This document shows positions 1-32,064 of a stretch of DNA of 64,000 nucleotides, in pieces. Origin of the DNA: Mytilus galloprovincialis (lineage: Eukaryota; Mollusca; Bivalvia; Mytilida; Mytilidae); NCBI RefSeq assembly GCF_965363235.1, contig NC_134848.1, positions 61,280,181 through 61,344,180 on the forward strand, read 5' to 3'. The notes under the pieces are model-generated. The model was not told the DNA's origin. It saw only the letters and a program-made list of their open reading frames with translations, and did no database searches. Positions within the stretch are counted from its first letter, which is position 1; each line of letters opens with the position of its first letter. The position numbers and the translations under genes were made by a program.

Positions 1-49
1 TCCAAGTTTGGTAATTTATTCTGTTGACCTGAAAGAAACCAAACATTTA

Positions 50-1072: not shown

Positions 1073-1387
1073 CTTTGAACTTTGTATTTATGTCAAAATT
1101 TCTGTTTCTTATAAAATTTCGCCGTTTCTCTTTAGTTTTTAATTCCCTCCGTTTTTTAGCTCTAGCATTTTGGAACCATACTCTTGCCACTTGTTCACTT
1201 ATTCCAATAGAATTTGCTATTTCTATTAATGTGTCCGTGTGAGGCATTTGATCCCTTAAGAAATGAAATTTGAGTGCTTGTAATTGATACTCCCTAAACA
1301 AAGTACGTTGACCACGTCGACTATGTTTATTTTGTGTCCCTCCACTTTTAGTTTTTTCTGTGAAATCTGTTTCTGGTGAAACAAGAC
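1073..1387 (-). CDS. Homeodomain 2 exon (canonical)
   Basis: The exon has 105 codons, acceptor TATTTTACAG, donor AAAG|GTTAGT, phase 1 to 1. It contains a full homeodomain: N-terminal arm SRRGQRTLF with Arg5, helix 1 [12 protein letters not shown], helix 2 [12 protein letters not shown], and recognition helix [15 protein letters not shown] with all DNA-contact residues. The WFQNARAK form is shared by LIM-homeobox and ZFHX-class homeodomains. A basic tail follows ([14 protein letters not shown]). The shorter companion exon at 3822-4073 lacks the basic residues, so this copy probably does the DNA binding. The frame meets a stop soon after the donor, so retention of the intron would end the protein just past the homeodomain. 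Confidence 0.9.
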
Positions 1388-4300
1388 CTGTAAAATATAA
1401 AAGAACTTTTTTTTCTATTTTAAAGAATGATAAACACAGAACACATATACAAGTTAACATTTTTCACAAAGAATGCAATAAATGCACAAATAACACCACA
1501 AAAGAGTAATCAAACAAAAAACCTAATAAACATGTAAACAATCAAATAATGCAACAAACAAGTAAACAAACAAATTAACACTATTAACAATGTTAAGGTG
1601 GTACCTAACACTACAGGGAGATAACTCTGTAAAATCAGCTAAACGTTTTAATTACGTTGTGTTGTAAAAGGAATATTAAGCTTCTCAATGATCAAAATTG
1701 GTGGTTGTCAAATTGCTATATAACCAGTGTAATTTTTCTGACAAAACGGTTGGTTCAAATCTTTTTTAAATTTTTATATTTTTGTTAAAGTGTCAAAGTA
1801 AATACATACTTTGACAAAATTTTATGAAAATTAAATGAGCCAAATTAATTTTAGTGAAAGTGTTGGGTACCACCTTAAGTAATCTTACAGCATTGATGAA
1901 TAACAAATTAATAATTATGTCTCTCTCATCATTTCTCATATCAAATGTATCATGTATATCTTTTATATTCATTTGAAAAAATTTACTGTTTCCAATAGCA
2001 TAAATTGTTCTAAATAATACGGATGTTCTTATCCCAAGCAAAAAACCCTAGCCGTATTTGGCACAACCTTTTTGAACTTTTGATCCTCAGTGCTGTACAA
2101 CTTTGTACTTGTTTTGACTTTCGAACTTTTATATCTGGGCATTGGTAAGTCTTGTGTGGACGAGGTGCGTTTCTGGCGTATTGAATTTTAATCCTGATGC
2201 CTTTGGTTAGCTATTATTCATGTGTTTCTTTGTTAAATATATTCAAATACCATGTACTGTGGATTCATTTATTTTCGTGGATATCAATTCTTGTGGATTG
2301 CTGAAAACTTGCATATTCGTGGATATTTGATTTTGTGGTTTTACCAATCTCTGTATACAAACCCTATTGAACATTTGATATTCGTTGACCATTTGAATTT
2401 GTGGTTCATCTGTATCCACGAAACTCCCAAAAATTTGGTATCCAACGAATAATAATGATTCCACAGTACATGGTATATGAATACAGTGACTGCCAAACAC
2501 CTTCAAAAACAAAAAGGAGCATGTCTGATATGTGGTTTATTAGTTCTACTCATAACAGACCTGTCTCTGAATCATTTTCTTCTTCCTCAAAACTATCAGA
2601 TAATATGAGTTCATCAACCTCCATATGTAATGGTACACTGTTATCTTCATACTCTAAAGACTGGTTCACTGTTCCTACTCTAGCTTCTGTTCCCTCCATG
2701 ACTACATTTCTGCTGTGAAGGGTTTCATCACTTTCTGATACACAGCTCTGTTGATCTAAAAATTATATGGGAATTTTTGTCTACTAGTTATATGCCTGTT
2801 CCAGGATACGGTAGTTAGTTGAATCTGTTATATATGTGATTTCCATGAAAAATGAGGATATCTTATTGATGAAATTATTATACAATATTTATTTGTATGG
2901 CCAAATTAGAAGCTTGACTGACCTTACATAAAAATAAATTCTGTATGAATGTTAGAAAGATTCGTGGATTTTTTAAGCAGATTACTTTCTGAAACCAAAT
3001 CTTAAAATTTTCAAACTTTAAAGTTGTGCACCTTTTAAATCTCATGTGTATACTATAAATCTGAAAACGATTAAGACTAGTAAGGAATTCTGTAATTTTT
3101 TGGCATTAAAATTGAAATATCTTTTTCAACTCATCGGTGACCTATATTTTTTATTATCATTTTCAAATAAGATGTACTTAAACTAAACTATTGTAAAATT
3201 TGAGCGATTTCTGTAATTTAGTTCTTTTATTTCGATATTACATCTATTTCTCCTATTAGTTCAACAGAAAAAAGTACCTTTACAAAAATGTATGCTTCTT
3301 GCGAAGACAGATTGTGAGCGTAAATGAACGGTGACCCCATTTTTTATTTTATTTTTCTATTAAGTATGAAATAAAGTTCATCTATAGAAAAATATAGCAA
3401 AACCCTATATTAAGAAAAAAATATCGATTCAGACCCACAAGCCCTCTTAACAAGAAATTTGAAGGAATGATAAAATGTTCTCACAGAAATTCATTAGTTT
3501 ACTGTTAAGAAATATTGTTGATGATGTTAAGGCCAAATAAAATATATGTGTGGTTCCAGTAACCCTACCGTCTCTACTTTTTCGGCTTAAAAATAGCCTT
3601 CCCTAAAGATTTTATTGTAATTTTTCATTAAGCACTGTTAAAGTCAGAATGTTGCTCCCATAGATTCAATGTAAAAAAAAACATAAAATTAAAAAAAATC
3701 CCTACCTACCTACACTAACTTTTTTTCAGATGTAACTGGAACCACACATACTTTTTTATTTGGCCTAAGTATGACAGTTCTAGCATGCCAAACTGGGTAA
3801 TTGATGAAATTTTAAGCTAACCTAATATCTTCACTCCTTGTTGGTATGTTGCATCAGCAATGGCATTTTGGAACCAAATTACTGCAGCTTGTAAGCTGAT
3901 TCCTGCTTCCTTAGCTACATCCAATATTTTGAAGTCGAGATTTCTTCTATTTATCAAGTGTGATTCAAGTATTTCTATTTGTTTCTTAGTGAAATAGGTT
4001 TGTGATGATTCCCGTGGTGGATTTTTCTTCTGTTCAATACTTTCCTTGTGACAAAGAATTGTAGAATCAGCACCTACAAATGATGAACTAATACATGCAA
4101 TAGATTGTTTTCCTTTCACATATTCTTTCCATAAAATGCACAATGACACTATGATATTATGGATGTGTTAACAAATTAGATAACAAAGATTTCAATTAAA
4201 AGTCTTTATATTTTTATTAATATTATAAAAAAAAGCATGCAAGTAATTTATAGGTATGTGAAAATAACAAAGTTATCTCCCCTGAATGGATAAATTATAC

Positions 4301-7300
4301 CTTCTGCTACACTATCTGATGATACAAATTCCATAACTTTTTTATACAGTGGTACATTATCCTTTGACTCTGTAGACAAACTGCATACATCTTTCTTTGC
4401 TTTTGTCTCATTCTGATGACTGCCATATAATATTCTACAAGTGCTGAAGAAAAAATATAAATACCAATGTATTACACTTAATAATGTATGTAAAACATCT
4501 TATTTTTTGGTTGCTACACCAATGTCCCAGGTTAATTCAGAGCTTTCTAACTAGTTTAACTCACCACTTTCTGTATGTGCCTGTCCCAAATCATGAGCCT
4601 GTAATTTAGTGGTTGTCGTTTGTTTGTGTTTATCATTTATATTTATTTTTCAATATTCTGTACATAAAATAGGCCATTAGTGTTCCCGATTGAAATGTTT
4701 TACAATTGTCATTTCCATGTATTTCATAGCTGATAATGCATTATGGGCTTTGCTGATTGTTGACGGCAGTATGGTGACCTAAAGTTGTTAGTTTTTGAGT
4801 CGTTATGTCTCTTGTAAAAAATTTTAAATCTAACAATTTTTTTTTATATGTTTTAATAATGGAAGTAACTAATTCTGTCAAAACATGTGATTTATTAATT
4901 GTATGGAGGATATTTTCATATTAGATTTTTTCAACATTTGTGTGTATATCTATCAAAGAGAAAAGTTTACGTTTAGGACCAACAAGAAAACTCAGAAAAA
5001 GGGACAACCTTGAAACCAATTACTGGTTTTAAACCTCTTTCTGAGTAGTAACTGTACATAACATATATGTCAAAAACAAACCTATCTACAATTTGTACAT
5101 CTCCAGCTGGCATTGATGGTTCATACATATTTTCAGGACTTGAAAATGTGTTGCTCCTTGCTTTCATCAACTCTGTTCTTGCATTTATAATTTCAGGACT
5201 TGTAATTGTGCTGTTCAATGCCCCTGGTCTTGCATGCATCATGTAAGGACTCTTTATTGTGCCGCCCAATGCCCCTGTTAGCTCTGGATGTACATGTGTA
5301 ATTTCAGAAGGTGTAACTGATTTGTTCCATGTTCCAGCAGCTTCAAGTTTAACAGGGATAATTTCAGAATCTCCAACAGTTGAACTGTTAAAAGTCCCTG
5401 CCAGATCTGGCCTTTCAAATGTAATTTTAGGATTTAAACCTATTCTGTTCCAAGTTTGTGCCAGGTCTGGTCTTACTTGTGAAAACTCATTATATGTAAC
5501 TACACTGTTCCATGTTCCTGCAAGCTCTGGTGTTACATTCGTAGTTTTAGGACTTAAAATAGTGCTGTTCCACGCTTCATCGACTTCTAGTTTTACAGGG
5601 GTAATAGCAGGACCTGTAACCATATTGTTTAATGTTGTTGTCAGCTCTGGTGTTACATGTGTAACTTCAGGACTTAAAACTTTTCTGTTCCATGCTTCAG
5701 CAATCTCTAGTTTTACAGGTCTAATTTCAGGACACATAATTTCTGAACCCGTGTCTGTCCTGTTATATGTTCCTTCTGATACCTGCTGCACGTCTGTAAT
5801 TCTAATATTTGAAACTGTACTGTTATTAGATTCTGTTTCTTGTTGCGACTTTTCAGTGTGGGTTTTTACTTTCTGTTAAAAAAAAAAAATACAATGTTCT
5901 GATTAAATTCCGAAAGCATTCATTCAAAAATAAATCACAACTGCATACATTTTGTACATATTTCCATTCTCAATTTTATATTAAAAATTGAGTACCCAAC
6001 AGGTTTAATACCACCAAATCATAGTAATTTACACATGGTTACATTACATAAAAGGGTAGAAACAAATATGACCTTGAACATGAGTTGCAAGAAATTGATC
6101 ATTAAGCATGTTTTAAAAGTATAAAAAACAAGGTAATCATGGTAATATAGAGAAAACCAATTGTATCATTTTCCTGAATTTGCTGGATATATCTAACCTT
6201 CATACGGATTGGGTTTTTATTGATTGATTTTAATTCTATGAGAGAATTAATAAGCTATTGCTTGTTTTTATCTTTAAGGTGGTACCCAACACCTTGAATA
6301 AAATTAATTTTGCTCGTTTAATTTGCATAAAATTTTGTTACCACAAAAATATTTACTTTGACTTTTTAAAAAAAAATAGAAAAATTTCAAAAAAATTGAA
6401 CCAATCACTTTCTTGTAAAAAAATTGGTTGGTTACATAGCAGTTTGACAAATGCTCATTTTGATCATTGAGAAGCTTAATATTTCCTTTACATTACAACT
6501 TGATTAAAATGTTTAGCTGATTTTTCAGAGTTATCTCCCTGTAGTGTAAGGTACTACCTTAAGTTACAAGGATAGTTTCTCAGCGGCATGCACTAAAAAA
6601 AAAGTACTAAAATTACTGTTGCGAAACACCTAACACTTCAGCTTTTAGATCCACAACTAAAGTTTGTTTTTACTAATTAAGCTTGTAAAAAGATATAATG
6701 AATTCTTTGCATATAAGTCTTTGTATTCTTTTTGTCAGTGTTCAATGGCATATTTATAATGCAATTAACCTGAACAATTGCATGCTAAATTTTGAATCTT
6801 CTTTGATCATAAATCTCATACCTGTACCCAGAGGGGTATGACCCCACCCCTTGAAAACAAATAAGCAGTGTTAAAGTCAACATTCTGTTTGAATAGTGAC
6901 TGTTAAAGTTAAGTTTTTGGGTCCAAATGACCCCTCTTTGGAATTTCCTGGCTACAGGCCTGAATCTTACACATACTTTTTTGCATTCTGATGACGTCAT
7001 CACATTCTTCAGTACTCCCGGTACAGAGAGACGTGTCATAGTGGTTGGAGTAGAGCAACACTTGGTAATAGTATCAATGACACTTGCCACATTAGTTTCT
7101 GTAATAGAGCGGTTAGAATAGACTTTGGATAATTTACATGTATGGCTAAGGTCCGTCATAAAAGTCATCAGAGAATCAATGTCAGCTGTCCCATCGTACC
7201 AGACAAGGTCGTCTGTCTTTACCGAATTCCTTGGAACTTGCCATAGAGCGTCATTGGATGGATCAAGTGCCTCTATATACTTTTTAAATGATTGAACAGG

Positions 7301-9955
7301 ACAATATGGGGATTCAGGAAGCTCGTAGATAACTATCTGATTTTCTTCCGATTTCATTTCATTTTCAGCTCTTCGTACAAACTGCAAATTTTCCTTTGAG
7401 TCGTTGATGATTTCAAATGAAGACTTTGTCATTTCAGACATATCTGATGTAACTTCATAGTGTCGATCAAAATGGAGTCTAACTTCAAACTGAACTTTGT
7501 TAAATAGTCCATTTGGAGTAAAAGGGTTCATGAGTTCGGACTGGTAAATCTTCTTCAAATCCCTTGCAGTGATCGGGGGGACTTTCTCTCCTTCATATTC
7601 TGTAATAAACAAATACTGTTAATTCAGAAATTTTTTAGTGCATTTATTATTGCTATCTTGTTATTTTAGACTAAAATGTGATTTTAATTTTTGTGATAGG
7701 GAGAATAATCCAGTGTAATTCATATAAATAATTTCAAAATGTAAGTTTAAATCATTGCGATTATAACCCTGTCGCATTTTTCGCAATAATAAAAACATCG
7801 CAATAATTTCTAAATTTACAGTAATAATAAACAATATGCATGGTTCTTTAAAAACATGTTATTTTAGTTATTTACTTAATGGTGCAATATTTATAGAGAT
7901 TCTTGTATTGGATCCTTTAATTTATTCAATCCAGATAGTAATACATGTATGATCGAATCTTAAACAAGTAATTAACATGATTAACTATGTAAGATTCTGT
8001 TTCTCTAATAACTACCAAATAAATTTTCATTTTTGATAATGGAAAATAACCTTAGAGCGCTTTCAACATTCTCATGATTCTGAAATTTCTACAGCATACA
8101 AATGTTACACTATATTGACCTGAGTGACTGAAGCAGACTCACCATTTGTTCTTGACTGTATACAAATATTATTTTTGTGCTGACTGAATGAACCTGAGTG
8201 ACTGAAGCGTCTTAAACAGTGTTTACACTGGTATGGCTTCTCTCCCGTATGAATTCTCATGTGTTCCTTCATATGGTGATTATGTTTAAAGCCTTGTCCA
8301 CAGGTATCACAAATGAATGGACGACAATCTGAAATATCCAATTAAAAATCAAAAATAATATGAATTGTGCTTGAATATAATCATGTTGAATTGTAAATCA
8401 GGTTGACCTACTTTTGACTGCAGGTTTCAAAAAACTAGTAAATGGTGAAAGTGGCGGCACAAAAAAAGATATATGTCATGTATTGTTAAGTAGTGATTTA
8501 GCATCCTTTCATTTTTATAAACGTGTATTTTAACATGATACACAATAAGTAAATTTCAAAACTTAAGAACTTAAATGCTTAAGAACAGAAACTAATTTTG
8601 AGACCCTACAGTCAAACACCATGTAAATCTTAATGCCACCTAAGCTTAGCTGCTGCAGGATATAAATTGTTGAGGGTTTCAGATTACAAAAACAATGCTC
8701 ACGGTCATTATTATTAAATAAGAAGATATATATGTAGTTACGATTGCCAATGAGGGAAATTTCCATCAGAGACCAAACAATGTAAATTTTAACAATTATA
8801 TGGACTTCAACAATTAGTGAAATATATAAGCTGCAAAAGAGAGGCGAAGATTCCAAAGGGATATTCAAATGCATAAGGCAGCAACCATTTGATTTTCTGG
8901 GGCGGGGGGGGGGGGCTATGGATTTTTTTTCTGGACAAACTTTTTTTTTCGCCTGCGGGGAAAAACAATCTATTTTTTTCAAGACAAGTCGAAAACAATT
9001 TTTTTCTTTCAATTTCAGCATTACACATAGTGGCAGCTGAGGGGGAAACAAATATTTTTTTTTTTCTCAGAATCAAAAACAAATTATTTTTTTCTCCAAA
9101 AACTGGAAACAAACTTTTTTTTCCAAAAAAATCCATAGCAAACCTCCCCCCCCCCCCTCCGCCATGGTTGCTGTCTAAGCTGAAACTAAACAATGCATAG
9201 CAAGCTATAAAAGACACTAACATGCATCAAATAACAAAATGTAAAACCATTCAAAAGAGAAAATAAGCAGCTTGATATAAACCAACTAACAGGCCAATAT
9301 CAATCAGGTGTCATACCACCAATTACTCCCTCAAATTTAGAATGTATGTGAAAGTAGGCCTACTCGGACAAAAAATAGTGCATTTGATGTCATTGTTCAC
9401 CTAAACTAACCAACAAATTTGCAGAAATGAAAGTTTTCTTGAAAGAGAAATATATTAAGACCATTTTAAGCCAAAATTTACCTATTAATGAGTTTGCATT
9501 AACAAATTGAGGATTAATGCGCTCCATAGTATACTAATTTAAGATTTCAAGAAAACCAGGGGTTATTTTTAGTGGTACATTTGTCCCTCCTTTCGGAAGC
9601 TCTCTTCTTTCTTATATGATTTTGAATGTATGTTGAAAATTGGCATGCAGAAATTGAAGGTGACAGCTGAACGATTCAGGATATACCTAGTTTCTATGAA
9701 GTTAAACTTAAGGTAAAATATTTAGAAAGCTGTGAAAATTGCAAAATTTGGTTGAACAGATAGGGACTTTTAATTGGTGGTATGACACCATCACTACAGT
9801 ATTTGGTTTGGACTTTAGTTTTCTATACAAAAGACTTCTGCATTTTTATCATCCCTTAAAGTTTTCTCCCTGCTACTAAAGATCTTCAAACTGACTGGAA
9901 ACTGACTAACCTGGTTCATGGGGAAAATAAAATACTTACAATTGAGGGTCTGCAT
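1073..9955 (-). CDS. Composite zinc finger / DUF3504 / double homeodomain gene (whole span, 3' end not found)
   Basis: Eight exons can be linked by GT-AG junctions of matching phase: 9955-9940 (tentative start), 8328-8143, 7599-6977, 5872-5082, 4443-4301, 4073-3822, 2755-2561 and 1387-1073. Together they give about 840 codons with no stop. Order in the protein: two C2H2 fingers, a DUF3504 domain (Crypton-derived tyrosine-recombinase fold, as in ZMYM2, QRICH1 and KCTD1-related proteins), ten 20-residue repeats, linker, homeodomain 1 (degenerate), acidic linker, homeodomain 2 (canonical). Fingers and homeodomains point to a nuclear DNA-binding regulator. The finger sequence resembles ZEB/zfh-1, which also combine fingers with a homeodomain, but I know of no ZEB with DUF3504. 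Exon 1387-1073 ends on a GT donor, so at least one exon is missing; it may lie at 1-1000 or outside the window. Each exon looks real. That they form one transcript is inferred from strand, spacing and phase. Confidence 0.75.
1593..1878. mobile_element. TTAA-type MITE, copy 1 (inverted relative to copies 2 and 3)
   Basis: The element is bounded by TTAA and carries inverted ends GGTGGTACCTAACAC and its complement GTGTTGGGTACCACC. The same roughly 287-bp sequence occurs at 6274-6562 and 11068-11357. TTAA target sites suggest a piggyBac- or Kolobok-driven non-autonomous family. It lies in the intron before homeodomain 2. Confidence 0.8.
2247..2474. mobile_element. MITE with ends ATACCATGTACTGTGGATTC
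   Basis: Inverted ends of about 22 bp close on a 180-bp body made of 'ttcgtgga' phrases. Related bodies lie at 10037-10780 and in part near 51.75 and 60.4 kb. It sits downstream of the acidic linker exon, in an intron. Confidence 0.7.
2561..2755 (-). CDS. Acidic linker exon between the two homeodomains
   Basis: The exon has 65 codons after the acceptor ATTTTTAG and before donor ACAG|GTCTGT, phase 1 to 1. It reads [17 protein letters not shown] at its start and ends with a strongly acidic stretch, [12 protein letters not shown]. No domain is recognised. Acidic linkers next to DNA-binding domains can serve activation or autoinhibition; here that is speculation. The plus-strand open frame at 2401-2718 is its shadow. 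Confidence 0.65.
3527..3768. mobile_element. MITE with ends TTAGGCCAAATAAAA
   Basis: The two ends are near-perfect inverted repeats of about 36 bp (GGCCAAATAAAA...GTGTGGTTCCAGT). The body is about 170 bp and non-coding. A half copy is visible near 44832-44870. It lies 54 bp beyond the donor of the homeodomain 1 exon. Confidence 0.75.
3822..4073 (-). CDS. Homeodomain 1 exon (degenerate recognition helix)
   Basis: The exon has 83 codons, acceptor ATTTGTAG, donor TTAG|GTTAGC, phase 1 to 1. A homeodomain fold is visible from [18 protein letters not shown] (helix 1) through [20 protein letters not shown] (turn and helix 3). Trp48, Phe49, Gln50 and Asn51 are present. The basic residues that normally follow (Arg53, then Lys/Arg at 55, 57 and 58 in WFQNxRxKxR) are replaced by [11 protein letters not shown] binding by this copy is therefore probably weak or lost, as in the divergent homeodomain of ZEB proteins. 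It lies about 1.1 kb upstream of the acidic linker exon. Confidence 0.82.
4301..4443 (-). CDS. Short linker exon between repeats and homeodomain 1
   Basis: The exon has 143 bases bounded by TTCTTCAG and G|GTATAA, phase 2 in and phase 1 out, joining both neighbours in frame. It reads [13 protein letters not shown], then a lysine-rich piece (TKAKKD), then an acidic/serine part ending SSDSVAE. No known domain is seen. It is too short for a long-ORF screen and is supported by the junction phases. Confidence 0.65.
4545..4770 (-). repeat. Dispersed repeat family A (reverse copy)
   Basis: Part of a family whose forward copies begin 'gatgtggtatgattgcc' and contain 'aatgagcaaagcccat'. Other copies are near 36.2, 39.1, 42.1, 42.9, 46.2, 50.6, 52.8 and 58.6 kb. 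No coding content was seen. It lies in the intron between the repeat exon and the short linker exon. Confidence 0.6.
5082..5872 (-). CDS. Exon of about ten 20-residue repeats with VKLE motifs
   Basis: The exon codes for 263 residues and begins [18 protein letters not shown] after an acceptor with a long pyrimidine tract (T-run then AACAG). About ten units of roughly 20 residues follow, with consensus near [20 protein letters not shown]. The core Trp-Asn and Pro-Glu-Leu or Val-Lys-Leu-Glu are best kept. Three units carry PVKLE, which fits the sumoylation consensus (hydrophobic-Lys-x-Glu). The units are diverged at both protein and DNA level, so the array is not young. The donor is AG|GTTTGT in phase 2. 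I know no domain of this type; a flexible or interaction region between the DUF3504 and homeodomain parts is an inference. The open frame on the opposite strand is a shadow of these repeats. Confidence 0.75.
6274..6562. mobile_element. TTAA-type MITE, copy 2
   Basis: Same family as 1593-1878, opposite orientation, with TTAA at both ends and inverted GGTGGTACC ends. Intronic in the zinc finger/homeodomain gene. Confidence 0.8.
6977..7599 (-). CDS. DUF3504 exon (Crypton-derived recombinase fold, predicted inactive)
   Basis: The exon codes for about 207 residues after the acceptor TTATTACAG. It carries the DUF3504 landmarks in order: an [10 protein letters not shown] start, [18 protein letters not shown] (N-terminal helix block), [17 protein letters not shown] (family CPVxxFKKY), [13 protein letters not shown] (family VWY), and [16 protein letters not shown] (family LSKxYTNHxIRxT). 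Tyrosine recombinases need the His and Arg of the NHxxR-type box. Here the corresponding residues are Arg and Thr, and the later GH box and nucleophilic Tyr are not recognisable, so catalysis is unlikely. The fold probably survives as a protein- or DNA-binding module. Two in-phase donors compete (GTATGT after 6977, GTAAGA after 6971). The reading frame is intact, unlike a decaying transposon, and it sits in phase between flanking exons of the same strand. Confidence 0.78.
7614..7823. mobile_element. MITE with ends TACTGTTAATTCAGAAATT
   Basis: Inverted ends match those of 41598-41811 and of the interrupted copy at 46126-47033 (family end ACTGTAAATTCAGAAATTATT). It stops 15 bases before the acceptor of the DUF3504 exon, leaving only the TTTGTTTATTACAG tract as host sequence. 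Confidence 0.7.
8143..8328 (-). CDS. Zinc-finger exon, two C2H2 fingers of ZEB/zfh-1 type
   Basis: The exon codes for 62 residues (186 bases, phase 1 at both ends). The acceptor is a TTTCAG and the donor is ATG|GTGAGT. Finger 1 reads C-x2-C-x12-H-x3-H around [10 protein letters not shown] and HMKEHMRIH. The standard linker TGEKPY follows, then finger 2 with QCKHC and [10 protein letters not shown]. The block SHSGS(F/Y)SQH and the KHxHHxxEH core are hallmarks of ZEB1/ZEB2/zfh-1 fingers. The second finger ends in H-x4-C (HKNNIC), the C2HC variant also seen at the end of the ZEB N-terminal cluster. Such fingers bind E-box-like DNA in ZEB proteins; the target here is unknown. Confidence 0.88.
8877..9175. 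mobile_element. TAA-flanked MITE with ends GGCAGCAACCAT
   Basis: TAA flanks both ends (8874-8876 and 9176-9178). The ends are inverted (GGCAGCAACCAT and ATGGTTGCTGTC), each followed by a G/C homopolymer. Inside is an array of 'aacaaactttttt'-like phrases. A 3-bp TWA duplication suggests PIF/Harbinger mobilisation. Open frames on both strands here are low-complexity artefacts. Confidence 0.72.
9307..9789. mobile_element. TIR element with ends GGTGTCATACCACCAATTA and 4-bp duplication
   Basis: A 19-bp perfect inverted repeat bounds 483 bp, with ATCA on both sides (9303-9306 and 9790-9793). No coding frame was seen, so it is non-autonomous. The superfamily is not clear from a 4-bp duplication alone. 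Confidence 0.72.
9940..9955 (-). CDS. Possible first coding exon (MQTLN) of the zinc finger/homeodomain gene
   Basis: An ATG at 9955 is followed by 16 coding bases and a strong donor (GTAAGT at 9939). It ends in phase 1, which is what the zinc-finger exon at 8328 needs, and would give MQTLN-Y-CRPFIC. The frame is also open upstream, so this could instead be the end of a longer exon, although no acceptor was seen. A cDNA would decide. Confidence 0.3.
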
Positions 9956-10784: not shown

Positions 10785-11067
10785 GCTGACATACATCGTG
10801 AGAATCCTGACTTTGTCCATGATTCCATCTTTCTCTTTAGGAGTTTCGATTCTTAAAATGTCTTTTGTCTTTGTCTGCAGATTTCATTCCATAGCTCTGT
10901 TACCATGGCAACTGCCTTCCATCATTTTCTAGGAGAATTGAGAATGTTATATGATGGCATCAATAATGAAAATAAAATAAAAATATTAATCATCAAAAAA
11001 CTATTTTTACTATCATGTACTATAACATGTGTACGGTAAATTCAGAAAATTATTCATGTTAAGTTAT
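10785..11067. other. Unique sequence, possible unannotated exon on the minus strand
   Basis: This is one of few non-repetitive stretches upstream of the zinc-finger exon. On the minus strand, after CTGCAG near 10879, a short open frame reads TKTKDILRIETPKEKDGI. No clear donor was found, so it is not called as an exon. Confidence 0.2.
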
Positions 11068-11357
11068 TTAAGGTGGTACCGACACTTTCACTAAAACTAA
11101 TTTGGCTCGTTTAATTTTCATAAAATGTTGTCAAAGTATTTACTTTTGATCCTTTAGTCAAATAAATATATATATAAAAAATTTGAAAATTTCGAACCAA
11201 CCGTTTTGTCAGAAATATTACACTGGTTATATAGAAATTTGACAAACACCAACTTTGATCATTGAGAAGCTTAATATTCCTTTTACAACACAACGTAATT
11301 GAAACGTTTAGCTGACTTTACAGAGTTATCTCCCTGTAGTGTTAGGTACCACCTTAA
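11068..11357. mobile_element. TTAA-type MITE, copy 3
   Basis: Same family and orientation as 6274-6562, with TTAA at both ends and end GGTGGTACC. Confidence 0.8.
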
Positions 11358-19715: not shown

Positions 19716-20599
19716 AAAATAGAATATATCAAGGAGAAATCATTAGCCACCTATAAAAATTGCGACCCATGGAAAAAATTCATGTCATCCCATTGTAGTC
19801 TTACAATATCTAATGAAGACCCCTTATCATTATTTAAATAAGTTTTTCAAGTTCTGAACATATATATTGTTTTTACATTTCCCAATATAGTTAACCCCCA
19901 TGTTCTATTTTTACTAATTGGGACCATTTTGGTTTTAGGGTAGGGTTATCGAATACATTTTCAGTATATTGCAGTACTATTTGTAATTCATTGCTGCAAG
20001 GGCGATCCTTCTATAACAAAAGACTCTCGAGTCTGAAATTGTATATTTTGGAATAGGATTCATAATAATTTTGAATGGCAAATGCTCTAAAAATTAATCG
20101 AAATATAAGTATTGGGCCTATAAATGAAAATATTTGAACATTAATGTAGTATCATTCATGGGCACAAAAGAGCGTAAATCCAAAGCCTTCCGATTCTCAA
20201 TTGGTCTGACAAAGTTAATTACATCACTAATTATATTTTAGTATTTTTTTGCATGGTTTATAGATCGGTACTTGGAAATATCATTTTCGCGGAAATTTTA
20301 ACCGTATATCTGTATCTGTCTGATCCAAAGTATTGTTCGGCGTTATCGACATATATTAAACCAATTCTCGCTAAAATCAATGCAAATCAGAGTAAGCTTT
20401 GTCTCTATTTTGAGGACCTATTTCCCCGTTTTAAACGAATAACAACTACAAGTGTTATTTTTTTCTTTATCTTTCCTTTGCCAACAAAGGTCTCGATGGC
20501 ATAAACTTAGCCAATATCCTTCATTATAAATGAGTTCAGTCGAAAATTCCTCCTTACTATACCAATCATTTCTTATACCTTAACCAAACCTATTGCAAC

Positions 20600-22340
20600 T
20601 ACTAAAATTTTCAATTACAAACAAGTTTTACAGGACCTCAATATTGACGACTACAAGTCTAAACCTCCTGATTGCACTTCTGCTATTTCCCAATTCACAG
20701 ATAATCCGACTGGCCACGTTATTACCGGCGACTTCAATATTGTCAATAACACTTCCCTGCGAAATATATTATCGAAAGGTCCGAAATGTCGTGAGCCTAA
20801 ATCCATCAATTGGAAATACAACTAAAAAATGTTGATGGATTCAGTCGAGTATTAAGCCAGGCATTGGGCTAAGCGCGAGATGGAAGACGTAGACACTCTT
20901 TCCGAATGGATTCACGCTGTGAGGTCGTTGATTCAAATCAGAATTAAGAAACTGAATGGGTCTATCAATAATAGTACCCATGCTACGTCAATCTTTAAAG
21001 AACCAAATGTTGCAAAACACTTATCCTACCTCCATCACAAATATGTTGTTGTCCCCACAGATAAAACCTCAAACAAAATCGTTTTTGTGTGTAAAACTCA
21101 TTACATTAACTGCTTGATAAACGAATTAGGTATTGACAATTCACTTGAAAACTCAACATATTCCCTCACGACACTAACCAAAGAGGAAATCCTGGATAAT
21201 CATGATAGGTCTCTTCTATGTTCCTTTAGAATGTCAACCAAAGATGAAGAACTGGATCTTCCATCACCTTATTGGATACATAAATTACATAAGTGCAAAC
21301 AACGGTATATTGCTGGGTATTGCAAGTGCTCCACGAAACCTCTTTCTAAATATTAACATCTATTTTATCAGCAATCAAAGCCGGGCTTCAAAGTTATTGT
21401 GAAAGTGACTATACTTGAGGTGGCGTGATTCAGATGTAGATACTAAATTTTTTTTTAGAGTACATACAATCTAACTCTCTTCCATCTTACAATAGTATTA
21501 AAACATTTGTCTTTTCTACACTTACACAAGTATTCCACATTCCAAACTAAAAGACAAAATGAAATAGTTGGTATTGCTTTGTTTTATAAAGAAGAATGGC
21601 CAACGTAGATACAAGTATCTTGTCTTAGGGAGGGATAAATCCTACTTTGTAAAGAATCACTCTGATTCAAACAAAAAATTCTCTGAAACTGACATTATCA
21701 AGATGCTTGATTTCTTGATTGACAACATATTTGTTACGTTCGGAGGACGTGTTTTCAACAGACTGTCGGCATTCCAATGGGAACCAACTGTGCCCCTCTT
21801 CTTGCGGACTTGTTTCTTTTTTTATTTCTGAGGCTGACTTCATACAGGAACTTCTTAGGAAGAAAGATAAGAGTTAGCAATATCCTTTAACTTTATTTTC
21901 CGCTATATATATGGATGATGTTTTCTCACTAAATAATTCAAAATTTGGATTCTATGTTGAACGCATCAATCCCATCGAACTAGAGATAAAGGATACAACA
22001 GATACAGTTAAGTCGGTCTCATATCTTGACGTACATCTAGAAATTGACAATGAGGGCCGGTTGAAAACAAAACTTTACGACAAAAGAGATGATTTTAGCT
22101 TTCCAATACTAAGTAGCAACACTCCAGCAGCACCTGCATACGGGGTATATATCTCCCAATGCTACGATATTCCCGTGCTCATGATTTTCCTGATAGAGTG
22201 TTGCAGCTCACAAGAAAACTATTAAACCAATAGTTCCAAATGGTGAAGTTGAAATCATCCCTTCGTAAATTTTACGGACGCCATCACGAGTTGGTTGACC
22301 GTTATGGAATAACTGTTTCACAGATGATATCGGATATGTT
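20600..22340 (+). mobile_element. Penelope-like retroelement, broken copy
   Basis: A reverse-transcriptase region of the Penelope-like class that is common in bivalves. Recognisable parts in order: an N-terminal piece around VITGDFNIVNN, the block VVVPTDKTSNKIVFVCKTHY, a WIHKLHKC finger segment, the catalytic YMDD motif in a VFSLNNSKF context, and the thumb-side SYLDVHLEID...YDKRDDFSF block. No GIY-YIG endonuclease was recognised. It is a fossil with several breaks spread over the frame, of moderate age judged by how clear the motifs still are. Its non-coding tail follows at 22440-22645. Confidence 0.85.
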
Positions 22341-22439
22341 TCTTATATCGTAACTACAATAACCTTCCCTTTCATGAATGTGACCTACAGAATTAGACTA
22401 ATTACCGTATTTGTTATAACATGAGCAACCCAACGGGTG

Positions 22440-22645
22440 CCCACATGTGGAGCAGGATCTGCTTACCCTTCCGAAGCACCTGATATCACCCCAAGTTTTT
22501 GTTGGGGTTCGTGCTGCTTGTTCTTTAGTTTTCTATGTTGTGTAATGTGTACTTTTTTTAGCCATCATGATGACGTTGTCAGTTTATTTTCGATTTATGA
22601 GTTTGAATGTCCCTCTGGTATCTTTCGTCCCTCTTTTGGACACAG
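22440..22645 (+). repeat. Tail of the Penelope-like element
   Basis: Directly follows the reverse-transcriptase remnant and carries the family tail phrases ('tttagttttctatgttgtg', 'tttgaatgtccctctggtat'). The same tail without coding part recurs in the window. Confidence 0.6.
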
Positions 22646-22974
22646 GGAATAACCATTTAATTTGCTAGAATCAGATTGTATAGCCTCGCCATGACACTAA
22701 TGAGCCAACGTTTTACAAATGACTATTGATGGGTCTCTTTATGCTCAAATCGTACTCGATAATAATTGTTGACAAGTTTGACAAGTTGACTGCTTCGCTC
22801 TATCCTAATTTAAGGTAATCTGGTAAAATGTGTGCATGTGGTTGTAGATTTAGTATTGGAAATGTGTTTTTATGGAAAATGGTTAACTTTCTAGTTCTTT
22901 CAGCTGGGTCATTGCCTTGCGATTTTGATTATACTAGTTCTATATATAATGTATTTAACTATATTATAAGACCT

Positions 22975-23195
22975 ATTGGTGACCTTCTGCTGTTGTCTGT
23001 TCTATTGTCGGGTTGTTGTCTCTTTGACATTTCCTCATTTCCATTCTCAATTTTATGTATTTTCTATGTTGTGTCATGTGTACTATTGTTTGTCTGTTTT
23101 TGTTTAATTTTTAACCATGACGTTGTCAGTTTGTTTTCGATTTATGAGTTCGACTGTCCCTCTGGTATCTTTCGTCCCTCTTTTAGAGTATGTTG
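22975..23195 (+). repeat. Second, separate copy of the tail repeat
   Basis: Begins 'ggtgaccttctgctgttgtc' and ends with the same 'tgtccctctggtatctttcg' phrase. It has no coding part in front of it. Confidence 0.6.
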
Positions 23196-23329
23196 ATTAA
23201 GAGTAACATGATTTCGAGTTCACTTTACTTGTTGAAAACATCTACAAATAGACACAAATCTGATGTGTACCTCTCTGGAGGTATGCCTAGATTGGCATTA
23301 GTTATAAATACAGGCTTTTCTAACTCAGG

Positions 23330-23480
23330 AATAGATAACATTAGCTGTATTTAACGAATTTTAGTCCTCAATGCTCTTCAATATCGTTCTTTAATTGGCC
23401 TTTTTAACCTTTGTTGATTCAAGCGTCTCTGATGAATCTTTTGTAGACGAAACGCGCATCTGGCGTAAATAAAAATAGTA
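23330..23480 (-). repeat. Dispersed repeat family C, inverted fragment
   Basis: Reverse complement of the 'gttgaagagcattgagga' and 'cgcgtttcgtctacaaaag' part of family C. Confidence 0.6.
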
Positions 23481-23514
23481 ATGCATTTTTGTTAACGTTG
23501 TATAGGATAAAATA

Positions 23515-24110
23515 GGGAAAGGAAATGGGGATTGTGTCAAAGCGACAACAACCCGACTATAGAACAGCCGAAGGCCACAACGGGTCTTCAATGTAGCGAG
23601 AACCTCTCGCACCCAGAGGCGTCATTCAGCTGGCCCCCTAAAAATATGTTTACTAGTTCAATGATAATGGACCTCATTCTAAATTATACACACGAAACTA
23701 AAATTAAAAATTATACAAGACTAACAAAGACCAGAGGCTTTTGACTTGGGACAGGCGCAAAATTGCGGCGGTGTTGAACATGTTTATGAGATCTCAACCC
23801 TCCCCCTATACCTCTATATAGTCAATCTAGAAAAGTAAACGCATAACAATACGTACATTAAAATTCAGTTCAAGAGAAGTCCGAGTCTGATGTTAGAAGA
23901 TGTAGCAAAAGAAAATAAACAAAATGACAATAATACATAGATAACAACAGACTACCAGTATTTAACTGACACGCCAACTCCAGACCTCAATTAAACTACT
24001 AGTAATTGAAAGATTATGTCTTCATCATATGAATATCAGGCACAATCCCTCCCGTTAGGGGTTTAGTATCATACTATCATAAAATATATGAGAAGAACAT
24101 AACCCGTGTC
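23515..24110 (-). repeat. Tail repeat of the minus-strand Penelope-like element
   Basis: Lies immediately beyond the 3' end of the reverse-transcriptase remnant on the minus strand. A solo copy in the opposite orientation is at 32400-32930. Phrases include 'gagatctcaaccctccccc' and 'agaagtccgagtctgatg'. Confidence 0.65.
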
Positions 24111-25960
24111 ATGCCAACAACTGTTTTTGTTTTTAATTAAATGTATTTAGTTCCGTTGCAAAGACCCTATAAGTGAATCAATATTAAAGCCAAAATATGC
24201 AATCTTTAATGACCTGACAACAGTATCGTAACTATATCCCTTCTTGATAAGTCTGTTTAAAGGTTTTGTAAGCTTTTGAGGTGAATACTGACATTTTTGT
24301 GCTTTGTAAAGAGTATTACCATAAAAGATTGGATGTGAAATACCTTAACGTATAAGATGTCTGCATATTGAGTACGAATTATTTCCTTATACCAATGATA
24401 AAATTTTGAAAATGTTTTGACTAGTTTGTGATATCGAAAACCCTGGTGTAATAATTTTTCAGTAACACATAAATTTCTCTCGCTGAAATCTAATACGTTA
24501 TTACATACACGAGCGAATCATACAAGTTGTGGTATATAAACACCATAAGATGGTGAAAAGGGAACGTCACCATCTTAAATGGATAATAAACGATAGGAAA
24601 TGAAAAATCATCTCTTTTATTATTTACTAAATTATAATCCTGGTACCTTTGATAACTATTATCATAATTTTTTGTATTAAGCTTCCCGTTAATGATAAAG
24701 ATATCGAGATCGAGGAAAGGGCAGTGGTCATTGTTAGTTTTAGCTTTATTTAAAGTAAGTTCAACAGGATAAATTTCTTTAGTATACATACTGCAGTCGT
24801 CATTATTGAGAGCCAATATATCATCCAAATATCTAAAAGTATTAGTTAAATTTTTGTATCAAATGTTGTTTCGATGGATCTTTGCTAATTTTAGTCATAA
24901 ATTGTAACTCATAACAAAACAAAAATGTTATTAAATAAAACTTCAAGCGCAGATATAGTATCAAAACATGTCCAATTGATATAGTTCTATTGTTTATTGC
25001 TACTAAAAAATGACTTAAAAGAGTTTGAACATACATACTCGCATTCTGACTTTTTAATGCCCAGTTAATTAGGGAAGTGATTTTTTTCTTAATAAGAATA
25101 TGAGGCAAAGTGGTATATAGGGTAGACAAATCAAAACTTTGAACAGATTCAAAATCACCAATATATACATGCAATTTATTTAGTACTTCCAACGAGTTTT
25201 TGACACTCCAAAAGTAATTAATTTCACTATTTTCAATTTATTATCAGGTTTTTTATTGTACCAATTGTACTAGTAAGTAGAATAGACAATCTAGTAGTGG
25301 AACAATGGATTGGAGATGAAATACATCTATATTTGTAAGGTTTTTTGTGTAGCTTCGGAAGCCAGTATACAGTTGAGACTTTCATTGTATTTGGCTCTGC
25401 TTGTAAAGAAGTAGTTAAAAGTATGTGTTTGTTACAGATGTCGTTTTCAAAAAATGAAGTCAGTTGAAATGTTGGTGAATTCGTGATTTCCTTTTGCAGA
25501 ACCTCAATATAAAATTTACGTCAAACAATAATGGTATTATAAGCAGCTTTATCAGCCGGGACAAAAACAAATGCCTTGGCTAGATCGTTTAGTTTATGTT
25601 TGATACACGAAATAGGGTTTTTATGGTTGTTGTTCAAAGTAAAATGTTCTGTAAAATGTTGTATACGAATATCATCACTGAATTAAAAAAAGAGTCCAAA
25701 GATTTTTTGTCAGCTTTTTCCCGTTTTACCCATTTCAAACAGTAAGTACGGAGTGAGTCGTGAATGGAATTACGACACTTATTCCAATTAATAATTGACG
25801 GGTGACGATATTTTAATAGGTCCTTTACTGAAGAATGATTTTAACTCTCAGTCGCGAACGATGTTAAGGTCTCCTGTTATGACATGGGAAATGGGGTCAT
25901 AAGTGTATTCGGAATTACTGCAATTACATGACATATGTGCATTTTCACTGATATTTACAT
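24110..25960 (-). mobile_element. Second Penelope-like retroelement, broken copy, different lineage
   Basis: Reverse-transcriptase blocks of the same class as 20600-22340 but clearly diverged from it. In minus-strand order: VITGDLNIV region, a FVPADKA block, YWLPKLHKKPYKYR, SFDLSTLYTTLPH, the YLDDILALNN catalytic motif, PFLDLDIFI, and a C-terminal GYSYDTVVRSLK...GFNIDSLIGSL segment near 24.2 kb. No endonuclease domain follows. It is a fossil with multiple breaks. The two Penelope-like copies in this window point tail to tail. Confidence 0.85.
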
Positions 25961-26532: not shown

Positions 26533-27854
26533 TCATTGATAAAACGACCGAGCTCTTAATTTATCTTCATGCAATTGAGCGTGTGTACATGCAAACATCA
26601 AGACGCAAAATACAAGAAATATGCCAACGCACACGTTCACAATTCGTTGGTCTCCAATATAAAAAACAAATTCGCGGTAATTAACTCTTCTTATTTTAGC
26701 TTCTAAATAGGGTCTGCAAAAAATACAAGTTTTTCTTAGATAAAATTGTGGGAAAGTAGTTGGATATTTCTCAACAAATTTTCTATAAAATTTCAAGCCG
26801 ACATTGTTGCAGATAAGCGAAATATTAAACGAGTTTGTTGGTCCATGGTAAGATACAATGGCTGTAATCGTAAAGAAAGGTAAACTGATGGAATTTCTGT
26901 CACATAATTTAAAAGTTCCATTCATGTGCTCAGTAAAGTATCCGATGGTGTTTTGTTCAAAATTATATCTCATCAGGATAATAAAGAAATAGTCGGTTCC
27001 AAAATATTTTTTGCCTAAAGTACCGACTTCGAATAAAATCGTGTTGTTCGGAAGAAATCTGTGTTCTTTTATAATTATTTCAACAGTGTAGAACATCTCC
27101 TCTTGCGACTTCGAAATCATAGGTTCAGAAAAGATATATGAGGAAATCGGATTATGAAAATGATAATCCGACACAGAATTATTCCAATTAGCAAATACTT
27201 TGGCGTCTTTTGATACAAACAAACCAGGAAATAATGTTGATGCATCAAATGTGACAAACGAAGGATATGACGAAATAATGGACACAGAAATAAAACTGTC
27301 ATTGCGATAAATGCCAAATATTGGCCACAATTCGCCCTCTGCTGCTGATACATTTTTAAATGTATATGTAACAGTTGAAGAATTTGATGACACTTGCAGA
27401 CTTTTCGTTTTTGGTTCCAACCTCAGTACCAAACGAGTTTCCAAGAGACCACTTTCTTTATCGTGTTTAATTCTTTGTATGTATGGCGATATCCTATCGT
27501 TGTATTGGAGGCATATATCGGTACCACAGTTTACGCCATAAACAACCCAAGAGTTTTCTGTGTTTTCATACGAATATGAGTCATGGACTTTGTTTCTTGA
27601 TATACCAATTTCAAAAATTTCCATTTCGTCGTGTATTCCCTGCTTTAATATACCTTCAATTTTGACAGAAATATCTAACTCGTACGCCTGGTCATTTTTA
27701 TACGATGTATTCCCGAATATCCCTTTAAACTTATATCGTCGATCACTGCAGATGAATCCTCTCGAGTATGGTTTTGAAGACACTGTTTTGTTGTCAAACG
27801 ATCTACATGGGAATAGGGTTGGACTGTTGTTGAATATAAAATGTAAATCTGGAA
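26533..27854 (-). CDS. Exon 3: tandem SPRY-like(?) domain and C-terminal membrane helix
   Basis: 440 codons including the stop, after acceptor TTTTTCTGATCAG. Two similar halves can be seen. Half 1 has YELDISVKIEG...FEIGIS and later LWPIFGIYRNDSFISVSII. Half 2 has YTVEIIIKEHR...FEVGTLG and later FPQFYL. The pattern of a beta strand pair followed by an 'LWPxxGxxxNxSxxSV'-type strand recalls SPRY/B30.2, the usual C-terminal partner of TRIM modules. This is an inference from pattern only. At least eight N-x-S/T sites fit an extracytosolic location. The helix VNVCVGIFLVFCVLMFACTH and a short basic tail end the protein. Confidence 0.78.
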
Positions 27855-30800
27855 CTGATCAGAAAAAGAGCTTAGTACATAATTACAAAACATCAACTAT
27901 ATATATAATTACACATTTGAAAACGAAGTTAATTTTCACAAGAGAAACAGCAATTATATATTGATTCGAACTCATGCTACTGAGATACTATTCGTCTCAA
28001 CATAAGACTAACAATAATATTTTGATTGTTACAGTATATATATAATTTTGACATACGTATATAATTTTATTTACAATCAAAATATATAATTTAACATACA
28101 TTTTGACATGATTTTTTTTATTGTTTAGAAAACATCACTGAAATAGCCCTAAAAATTAAATAGATCACCGAACATTTCACATGGTATATCGAGCCAACTG
28201 TACTAATATATAAAACAATATTTACATCTGGAATTTAAACATTAAAAAAAATGTATAATTCATATCGTTTGTAAATCTCAAACATTTGTTGTTATTCAAA
28301 TAAGACATTTGAAATCGTATGAATATTCTTAGTAACCTCATGTCAAAATGTCAGTTTTGATTGCATGGTTGGTACGAGGGAAACAATTTACTCTATCACA
28401 TGGCAAGTACTCTTCTATCCTTCACGGCGAAGCTTGATCAAGTGTGCGCTTTCATAAAAAGCAATGAGTATTATGTACAATTAAGACGTCATAGTTTATA
28501 ACTGTGAATTTGAAATTTAATATACAGTTATAACAGAGCATGCAATATACTAAATTAAATAACACATATTAGAAAGGGTGATAGAGAAAATTGTTATATC
28601 CCTCGAAAAAATAAATATCGTTAATAGTTATCAAATGTACCAGGCTTATAATGTTATTCGCATGACTCGCGTTTAGTTTAAATAAGACTCATCAGTGACG
28701 CTCAGATCAAAATAATTAGAAGGACAAACAAGTGTGAAGTTGAAGAGCTAGGCTGACAATGTTTTCTTAAGGTAACGATTTGCTCTATTACCCTCTCAGC
28801 TATGTGTTATTTATATAATATACCGGCAGATTTTTTTCGTTATCTATTCATAAAATGCTATATTTAGGGTGATTTTACAAAACAACCTAAAAATCTACAT
28901 CAATAATAGGACAAAATTTCCTTCGCAGAAAACATATGAAGACATAAAGATTAATTCAAATGGCGAAAGAGAAACAGTTATAGATCAATAAATACCTATG
29001 TCTGAACCAAGCCATAGATGCGGGATTTCATCAGCAAAAACATATACTGTTGTTGTAAACACTGTGAAAAGGAGTGCGATAAAGGTCACTATGTGCACTG
29101 TATACTGAGTTGTCTGTTCTATAAATTCAATAATTTCAATAGCACTGTGAAACCATGGAAAGCCGGTTATCTTTCCTACAAAGTAAAACAATATTACACA
29201 ATCTTATTTACCAGCTAGCGCATGTCTTAAGTCTTGTATCTTCTAACGAGTTAAAAGTGATAATATAAAGTGTGTGTTTTAAGTCGATATTTAATAAAAC
29301 CATCAGGAATGAAATTGGTGAATGCAGTAAACATATATATTTCATGTCCAGTATATATATGTAATTTTAAAAAAGTTTTCCATTCGCCTGTCCGTTGAAA
29401 AAGAATACTAGTATTGATTTTCATTTTAAGAAAAATAATTTGATGTTTTTTTAACGGTTGGTTTTTATGTGTTTTTTATATTTTGCTCATAACATTTCGC
29501 CGAAAAGCGGGGTCATTAATTGTGGTCTTGGGTCTATTAAGAACAGATGTATTCCGAATAACATCCGGTGTTCCGAAAGACTACGGACATCGTCGAATAT
29601 ATACTGCGTAAACCCCCTCAGGGGTTTACGCAACTGAGGGTTTACGCAATAAATTTCAAGACTTAACATCGTTTTTTGCTAACTCGTATTCATAAGTTAT
29701 TTGTCAATATAATTCAGATTAATATTAGAGATATATAATACATGTCTCTGGTTATATTTTGTAAAGAGAGTAAGTGGGTATTTTTCATGTTCTATTAGTA
29801 TTTAACGTTGTATTGCTAATGTATTTTATCAAAGATTTGGCACCAGATTGAAGGACTTACGAGTTATGTCCCCTACTTGTTTTAAGCTTGTAATAGATTA
29901 AGATTACGTATGCTAATTAGATATTTTCGCATAAAAAGTGCGCACAAATCTCAGTGTGTAATTTTAAATTCTCAGTGTGTGTTTTTCAGTTTATTTCATC
30001 TCAGTGTGTCTTTTTAAAATCTCAGTGTATAATTTTCAATTCTCAGTGTGTAATATTCAATTCTCAGTGTGTGTTTTTCTTTTTTCGTAATCTCAGTGCG
30101 TCTTTTTAAAATCCCAGTGTGTAATTCATGTAATTCCTTATTCTCAGTGTGTTTTAAAAAAAATTCTCAGTGTAAAATTTTCGAAAAATGTTTTAAACAT
30201 AGTTTTGACGAGAACGGCTTGCCATAATGACTGATGTATTGCCTATCTTTTAAATTAAAAATATAGCTTGTTGTAATAGACAATTTTTACTTATTTCATT
30301 TTTTTTGTTTGTATTTGTTTGTTTGATTGTTTATAGATGCATGTTCAATGAACTTTCATCGACATTGGCTATATATATTTTTTTGTATTAGTGGAGGACA
30401 CCGGATAACCCATGGAGAACCACCGATCGATATGAGGAAAGTTAACAATTTTAGTCGATTAGATCGAAGTTTGCCACACAACTCGAGATCACCACAAGCG
30501 AGGTACGAACTCACAACCTATTAGCAATGACAGACCCAGTGGCGGATCCAGGGGGGGGGGGGGTTCCGGGGGTGCGCACCCCCCCTTTATTTTTGCCGAT
30601 CAATGCATTTGTATCGGGACATATGTTTTGCACCCCCCCTGCACCCCCCCCCCCTTTCGAAAATTCCTGCATCCGCCCCTGAGACCAATGCAGTGAAGAT
30701 GACCTCCTAAGTCTAGTTGGCCACTAAATCCATAAAATTTAATTGTAGGTTAAAAGATAATGTTAGTATACAAACTTAGTCCCCGTCTGCAGCTTTTGTT

Positions 30801-31838: not shown

Positions 31839-32064
31839 CGAACATTTGCTATAAATATTAAAGACGAGGCATAATTTGGTTGCAGATATCATTGACATTC
31901 AATGTTAAATAAATTAGGTATATTTTTTGCTGTAATATTACAATATTATAGAGATCTCAGTTTTTAGAAATTATATTAACTATACCCTGATATAGCACGT
32001 TTTTGTTGACATAAATTATAATTGATAAGACGGTGAACTGTTTATAAAACTTTTTTTTTCGAAA

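What the first reader, a model, noticed from the sequence alone, without database searches (positions are those of the whole stretch)
1073..9955. A host gene that joins ZEB-type zinc fingers, a Crypton-derived DUF3504 domain and two homeodomains
Seen: seven exons on one strand, each with intact frame and good splice sites, all joining in phase, in the order fingers, DUF3504, repeats, homeodomain, homeodomain. Known: DUF3504 proteins descend from Crypton recombinases, and ZEB/zfh-1 genes combine fingers with a homeodomain. Inference: a captured recombinase domain became part of a homeobox regulator. I know of no described protein with this architecture.
Basis: partly seen in the sequence, partly recalled or inferred. 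Interest (0 to 1): 0.86.

Follow-up and report, generated by a model that had tools for sequence, protein, structure and literature searches.

The report
Homeobox gene carrying dead recombinase domain
This DNA appears to hold one animal gene that joins two E-box-type zinc fingers, an inactive piece of a jumping-gene recombinase, a repeat array and two homeodomains, a gene-regulator design not met in the papers searched, though no RNA or second species could be examined to prove it.

Summary
Seven minus-strand exons (8328 to 1073) join in phase at AG/GT sites. A codon score is positive in 7 of 7 exons and negative in 13 of 14 in-frame extensions beyond them; 0 of 163 control chains do as well on sites and phase. 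The finger pair is ZEB-like: 30/47 and 32/51 identical to recalled ZEB1 pairs, 32-44% to four other pairs. HD2 is canonical (Pfam 4.3e-16); HD1 is degenerate (21.0 bits, cut-off 22.9). DUF3504 is below Pfam's cut-off (17.6 against 29.7 bits) but strong against recalled DUF3504-like sequences (95.1 bits; best of 2000 shuffles 9.8). Recombinase catalytic residues are missing. Corrections: the homeodomains are not ZEB-like; the repeats are about ten 20-residue units with three VKLE (SUMO-type) motifs; linker and homeodomain exons look duplicated as a pair; the gene probably runs out of the window. Best reading: a host transcription factor with a captured, catalytically dead Crypton-type domain. 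No RNA, relative or own genome was available, so single-transcript status and function are inferred.

The parts
9940..9955 (-). possible first coding mini-exon, ATG to phase-1 donor (MQTLN)
   Evidence: ATG and donor seen; donor at 95.9th percentile; weak evidence, start not proven
8143..8328 (-). exon with two C2H2/CCHC zinc fingers, ZEB-like
   Evidence: Pfam zf-C2H2 1e-07 and zf-H2C2_2 2.6e-10; 30/47 and 32/51 identical to recalled ZEB1 pairs
6977..7599 (-). exon with DUF3504-like (Crypton tyrosine-recombinase core) domain; match about 7516-7079
   Evidence: PF12012 17.6 bits, E 0.0043, below cut-off 29.7; 95.1 bits to profile of recalled DUF3504-like sequences, best of 2000 shuffles 9.8
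5082..5872 (-). exon of 20-residue tandem repeats (units at 5734-5141) with three VKLE motifs near 5716, 5596 and 5353
   Evidence: lag-20 autocorrelation 0.42, best lag of 500 shuffles -0.18; units laid out
4301..4443 (-). linker exon 1
   Evidence: similar to linker exon 2: score 56, 0 of 2000 shuffles reach it, maximum 48
3822..4073 (-). exon with degenerate homeodomain HD1 (about 4014-3838)
   Evidence: Pfam 21.0 bits, cut-off 22.9, 22.1 trimmed; three-helix model, 50 of 50 listed Foldseek hits homeodomains, best E 0.02
2561..2755 (-). linker exon 2, acidic
   Evidence: highest per-codon coding score of the seven exons, above all 157 control segments
1073..1387 (-). exon with canonical homeodomain HD2 (about 1319-1140) and basic tail
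   Evidence: Pfam 4.3e-16, 58.9 bits; Q50, N51, R53 present
1..28 (-). possible next exon, running out of the window
   Evidence: acceptor at 99.87th percentile, phase 1 open; phase 0 also open by eye; a dispersed repeat ends near 50

Best explanation
One host gene, on the minus strand and probably running past position 1 of the window, encodes a nuclear DNA-binding regulator. Its first half carries one ZEB-type finger pair, then a captured tyrosine-recombinase core of Crypton/DUF3504 type that can no longer cut DNA, then a spacer of 20-residue repeats with SUMO-type sites. Its second half carries homeodomains that look duplicated together with their linker exons. Likely working (inferred): the fingers read a CACCT-type E-box and HD2 a TAAT-type site; HD1, which has lost basic contacts, and the recombinase-derived domain hold partners or copies of the protein together; the SUMO-type sites recruit or tune a corepressor. 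Shown: exons, phases, domain resemblances, absence of the later active-site residues. Inferred: single transcript, nuclear role, DNA targets, partner binding, repression.
For: Phase-compatible chain, 0 of 163 control chains as good; codon score stops at the splice sites, 13 of 14 extensions negative; all seven exons in the first 10 of a blind scan; fingers ZEB-like; DUF3504-like domain; homeodomains; linker and homeodomain exons similar in pairs, which ties four exons together as one unit. The extension of the DUF3504 exon to its stop codon is 63 codons of strongly negative coding score, so it is not a plain last exon; the repeat exon has a 99.9th-percentile acceptor, so it needs an exon before it. 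Known DUF3504 proteins are mostly regulators with other DNA-binding domains (PMC3212892, abstract and section 16).
Against: No transcript, ortholog or own genome. DUF3504 under Pfam's cut-off and not listed at all when the whole spliced protein is scanned. Recalled baits were typed after I had read the exon. Donor at 5082 and donor at 4301 weak; blind site choice agrees in phase at only 4 of 6 junctions. Per-codon coding scores of 6 of 7 exons lie within the range of control segments, and HD2's sum turned negative with another background. Repeat units show no codon-level constraint. The protein model of the DUF3504 exon was unusable.
Confidence: 0.6

Rival explanations
1. Two neighbouring genes on one strand: a finger plus DUF3504 gene and a separate two-homeodomain gene, which only appear joined because compatible phases were picked.
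For: The donors that link the halves (6977, 5082) are not the best in their frames and 5082 is weak. No RNA.
Against: Coding score of the frame past 6977 is -8.76 over 63 codons, so the DUF3504 exon does not simply read on to its stop. The repeat exon has one of the strongest acceptors of the strand and no methionine in its first 45 residues, so it needs an upstream exon. 0 of 163 control chains pass.
Confidence: 0.2
2. A decaying gene or pseudogene: a former homeobox gene that picked up mobile-element sequence and is losing function.
For: HD1 is degenerate; repeat units differ more at codon positions 1 and 2 than at 3 (0.41, 0.43, 0.365); the recombinase tail is missing.
Against: No stop or frameshift in 2,505 coding bases; HD2 keeps its contact residues; the DUF3504 exon has no second copy in the window and no dispersed repeat overlaps an exon, while six of the eight flanking introns or intron-like stretches carry repeats of at least 100 bases or short matches elsewhere.
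Confidence: 0.12
3. The exon 7599-6977 is not recombinase-derived, so the gene is just a finger-homeodomain gene with an unknown domain.
For: Pfam score 17.6 under the cut-off 29.7, with Rpb5_N next at E 0.053; one shuffled control reached E 0.022 with another family.
Against: The family was named before the scan; 95.1 bits to the recalled profile against 9.8 for the best of 2000 shuffles; hhalign probability 99.4%; each of three baits alone 184-249 against at most 63 in 1000 shuffles.
Confidence: 0.08

Closest known systems
Domesticated Crypton DUF3504 genes (KCTD1b, KIAA1958, ZMYM2/3/4, QRICH1, WOC), PMC3212892
   Same: A DUF3504-like domain without the later catalytic residues, inside a longer protein with other DNA-binding domains
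   Different: None of the genes named in that paper's abstract and the sections read carries homeodomains or ZEB fingers; here the Pfam score is below cut-off
ZEB1/ZEB2, fly Zfh1, worm Zag1 (PMC8304685, passages)
   Same: A finger pair about 63% identical to ZEB1 pairs; fingers combined with homeodomain and long spacer
   Different: Two fingers instead of four in the first cluster, homeodomains not ZEB-like, at least two of them, DUF3504-like domain between, no PxDLS-type motif by pattern
ZFHX (ATBF1) and ZHX/HOMEZ zinc-finger homeobox genes (recalled)
   Same: Fingers with more than one homeodomain; ZFHX3 homeodomain 2da3 is the best solved hit of HD1 and among the best of HD2
   Different: ZFHX has many more fingers (recalled); neither has DUF3504 as far as recalled; LHX9-type homeodomains score as well or better for HD2
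Oyster homeobox genes of undetermined family, such as Cgi_ZF (PMC5322547, section 9 read)
   Same: Bivalve zinc-finger-class or unclassified homeobox genes without assigned family
   Different: Their domain make-up is not given in what was read and no sequence was at hand; relation unknown

Membership tests
DUF3504 (PF12012) | Score above Pfam's curated cut-off | tested here: not met
   17.6 bits against 29.7, E 0.0043; filed as DUF3504-like only
DUF3504 (PF12012) | Similarity to DUF3504/CryptonA recombinase sequences | tested here: met
   Only against three recalled composites, two of them checked and accepted by Pfam as DUF3504: 95.1 bits, best of 2000 shuffles 9.8
DUF3504 (PF12012) | Loss of most of the R-H-R-Y tetrad (PMC3212892) | tested here: met
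   Alignment: bait NHSIR is NRSIT in the exon, and the GH and Y tail does not align (tail scores 16-25); read against recalled sequences
DUF3504 (PF12012) | Tyrosine-recombinase fold | tested here: inconclusive
   Single-sequence model, pLDDT 33.8
ZEB/zfh-1 | E-box finger pair of ZEB type | tested here: met
   30/47 and 32/51 identical to recalled ZEB1 pairs
ZEB/zfh-1 | First cluster of four fingers | tested here: not met
   Two fingers; no further typical finger on this strand of the window by pattern or in the first 26 kb by blind scan
ZEB/zfh-1 | ZEB-type homeodomain | tested here: not met
   ZEB1 homeodomain lowest of eight for HD1 and HD2; its typed letters lack the N-terminal arm, which lowers its score somewhat
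ZEB/zfh-1 | Second cluster of three fingers at the C-terminus | not testable with these tools
   The gene probably continues beyond window position 1
ZEB/zfh-1 | CtBP-binding PxDLS-type motifs | tested here: not met
   Pattern P.DL[STA] absent from the seven-exon product; unknown beyond the window
Homeodomain (PF00046) | HD2: score above cut-off and standard contact residues | tested here: met
   58.9 bits, cut-off 22.9; Q50 N51 R53
Homeodomain (PF00046) | HD1: score above cut-off | tested here: not met
   21.0 bits alone, 22.1 trimmed, cut-off 22.9; homeodomain-like model and hits, so called homeodomain-like

The most novel reading that the evidence does not exclude
Probability: 0.35. Interest if true: 0.78.

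Novelty: new variant of a known kind. Interest (0 to 1): 0.6.

Why it matters
DUF3504 domains are known in a handful of regulators, and no function of the domain had been reported when PMC3212892 (section 16 read) was written. A gene in which the domain sits beside fingers and a homeodomain with predictable targets would make its role testable, and would be a case of homeobox-gene innovation by capture of a mobile-element protein rather than by duplication alone.

Tried and rejected
Structure of the DUF3504 exon alone: pLDDT 33.8, unusable. Solved structures for the DUF3504 exon: four weak hits, best Abraxas at E 0.055. Searches for real DUF3504 relatives: viral contigs three times and genome contigs with the bait alignment, none confirmed. 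PF12012 in 7, 84 and 369 prokaryote genomes, hoping for host contamination: 0 matches; the 14 control genomes did not ring either, so this says nothing about absence. Finger alignment in genome contigs: 12 loci at 39-53% identity, taken as generic C2H2 frames and not read further; 8 of the 12 were given, of which L004 was not held. A ZEB finger string in papers: 0 papers. Further fingers upstream: besides the two fingers, three loose pattern matches on this strand (43560, 39054, 28461) do not look like fingers by eye. The blind scan's extra candidates 884-709, 12604-12523 and 2500-2363 were not accepted, by eye. Rejected: an active Crypton (active site gone); a plain ZEB ortholog (homeodomains differ, two fingers); RNA_pol_Rpb5_N on the DUF3504 exon (E 0.053).

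Novelty searches: homeobox + DUF3504, 3 papers: passages of one read (PMC4169000), two seen in the listing only; Crypton + homeobox, 4 papers, listing only; further listings. None described such a fusion in what was seen. Most subscription papers, preprints and protein databases were not searched, so the architecture may already sit in a database.

Full report
What was checked. They are open, flanked by AG and GT, and join in phase to a product of about 835 residues. The window is 32.6% G+C with no N. At that composition the open frames of 277 and 300 codons around the DUF3504 and repeat exons are very improbable by chance (my estimate from stop frequency), so these two at least are, or recently were, coding.

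How good is the chain? With a generic splice-site score, 6 of 7 acceptors and 5 of 7 donors are the best in their open frame; the donor at 6977 is third, the donor at 5082 second, the acceptor at 2755 second. Always taking the best site blindly gives phase agreement at 4 of 6 junctions, which alone is weak. Requiring compatible phases and sites at least as good as the weakest in the model, 18 of 175 neighbouring control segments pass and 0 of 163 control chains of seven pass. The controls are stop-free segments of at least 60 codons, 96 on the plus and 82 on the minus strand; minus-strand segments of the first 9 kb were dropped, and the thresholds come from the model itself. A random-draw version on the 82 minus segments gave 0 of 5000 draws, which repeat the same chains many times.

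Coding signal. A codon score trained on two other ORFs of the window (26536-27858 and 30753-31898; the first has no Pfam match at E 0.01) is positive over 7 of 7 exons and negative over 13 of 14 in-frame extensions past the splice sites; the exception is 5 codons long, and several other extensions are only 1-7 codons. The model frame is the best of six for 7 of 7 exons. Against this, the per-codon values of 6 of 7 exons lie within the range of 157 control stop-free segments, though above their 75th percentile, and with a wider background HD2's coding sum was -2.5. A blind exon scan of 26 kb ranks all seven in its first 10 of 28 listed candidates; two have other borders, and three non-model candidates are mixed in, one of them (12604-12523) upstream of the finger exon.

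Fingers. Pfam finds two C2H2 fingers. The second finger is of CCHC form. Read by eye, the residues at helix positions -1, 2, 3 and 6 equal those of the recalled ZEB1 fingers 6 and 7. ZEB proteins bind CACCT-type E-boxes through such clusters (PMC8304685, passages), so that target is predicted here, not shown.

DUF3504. Pfam gives PF12012 at E 0.0043 and 17.6 bits, under the cut-off of 29.7. Since this family was named before the scan, the chance of that score in that one model is about 1.7e-7 (E divided by 24736, my arithmetic). But a shuffled control reached E 0.022 with another family; four shuffles and the reversal gave no DUF3504, and the scan of the whole spliced protein did not list DUF3504 at all. 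The baits were typed after I had read the exon, so some bias is possible. The match ends just after the place where the baits have N-H-S-I-R; there the exon reads N-R-S-I-T, and the GH...Y tail does not align. Loss of the catalytic tyrosine and second arginine, and mostly of the histidine, is what PMC3212892 (section 10 read) reports for domesticated copies.

Repeats. Exon 5872-5082 shows a sharp 20-residue period (0.42 at lag 20; best lag in 500 shuffles -0.18). Nine gap-free units and one of 17 residues can be laid out at 5734-5141 (the short one by eye, in line with the 51-base period). Three units carry VKLE, a SUMO-consensus form (the consensus is recalled). Units differ at codon positions 1, 2, 3 by 0.41, 0.43 and 0.365, which gives no sign of protein-level constraint between units.

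Homeodomains. HD2 is canonical (4.3e-16) with Q50, N51 and R53. Its highest solved-structure hits are DUX4 chains, whose totals add two homeodomains; the best single-homeodomain ones are LHX9, Aristaless and ZFHX3. HD1 is degenerate: 21.0 bits under a cut-off of 22.9, net charge 0 against +6, with I53 and D55 (it is one residue shorter, so its N-terminal numbers shift). Its model, made with HD2 as the only other row, has three helices (pLDDT 67.1); the 50 Foldseek hits listed of 442 are homeodomains, best E 0.02, none at 0.001. Neither resembles ZEB1's homeodomain, whose typed letters match 2e19 over 52 residues. HD1 and HD2 resemble each other, and the linker exons before them resemble each other (scores 81 and 56; shuffle maxima 55 and 48; 0 of 2000 shuffles each reach them). 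This suggests, without proving it, that a linker-homeodomain pair was duplicated.

Limits of the gene. A possible ATG mini-exon lies at 9955-9940. After HD2 the frame leaves through a donor at 1073. A very strong acceptor before position 28 opens a phase-1 frame that runs out of the window; phase 0 is open too (by eye), and a dispersed repeat ends near 50. So the C-terminal end, possibly with more homeodomains or ZEB-type fingers, is unknown. Exons are single-copy in the window apart from the internal repeats, while repeats seen elsewhere in the window fall in the introns.

Reading. The most likely thing is a single host regulator gene with a captured, catalytically dead Crypton-type domain between a ZEB-type finger pair and a duplicated homeodomain part. 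What it works like: the known DUF3504 regulators and multi-handed factors such as ZEB. Membership: it fails the tested ZEB criteria of finger number and homeodomain type and falls under the Pfam cut-off for DUF3504, so it is filed as DUF3504-like and ZEB-fingered, not as a ZEB. In the papers searched (parts of five papers read) no such combination was met.

Noticed in passing
56262-57194 (+): Open frame of 311 codons with a MULE transposase domain, Pfam 2.8e-12.
   Followed up: no
30753-31898 (-): Open frame of 382 codons with a RING finger and a sub-threshold B-box (TRIM-like), Pfam zf-RING_5 2.1e-06.
   Followed up: no
26536-27858 (-): Open frame of 441 codons without a Pfam match at E 0.01.
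   Followed up: no
1593-1878, 6274-6562, 11060-11357: A dispersed repeat of about 290-300 bases in two introns of the gene and upstream of it, 77-88% identical.
   Followed up: no
20511-25237, both strands: Several open frames of 104-166 codons that look by eye like broken reverse-transcriptase pieces; the five that were scanned gave no Pfam match at E 0.01.
   Followed up: no
L001-L012: Bacterial and archaeal assembly records, three of them named Endozoicomonas Pac_F2a, hold C2H2 zinc-finger frames, perhaps eukaryote contamination.
   Followed up: partly
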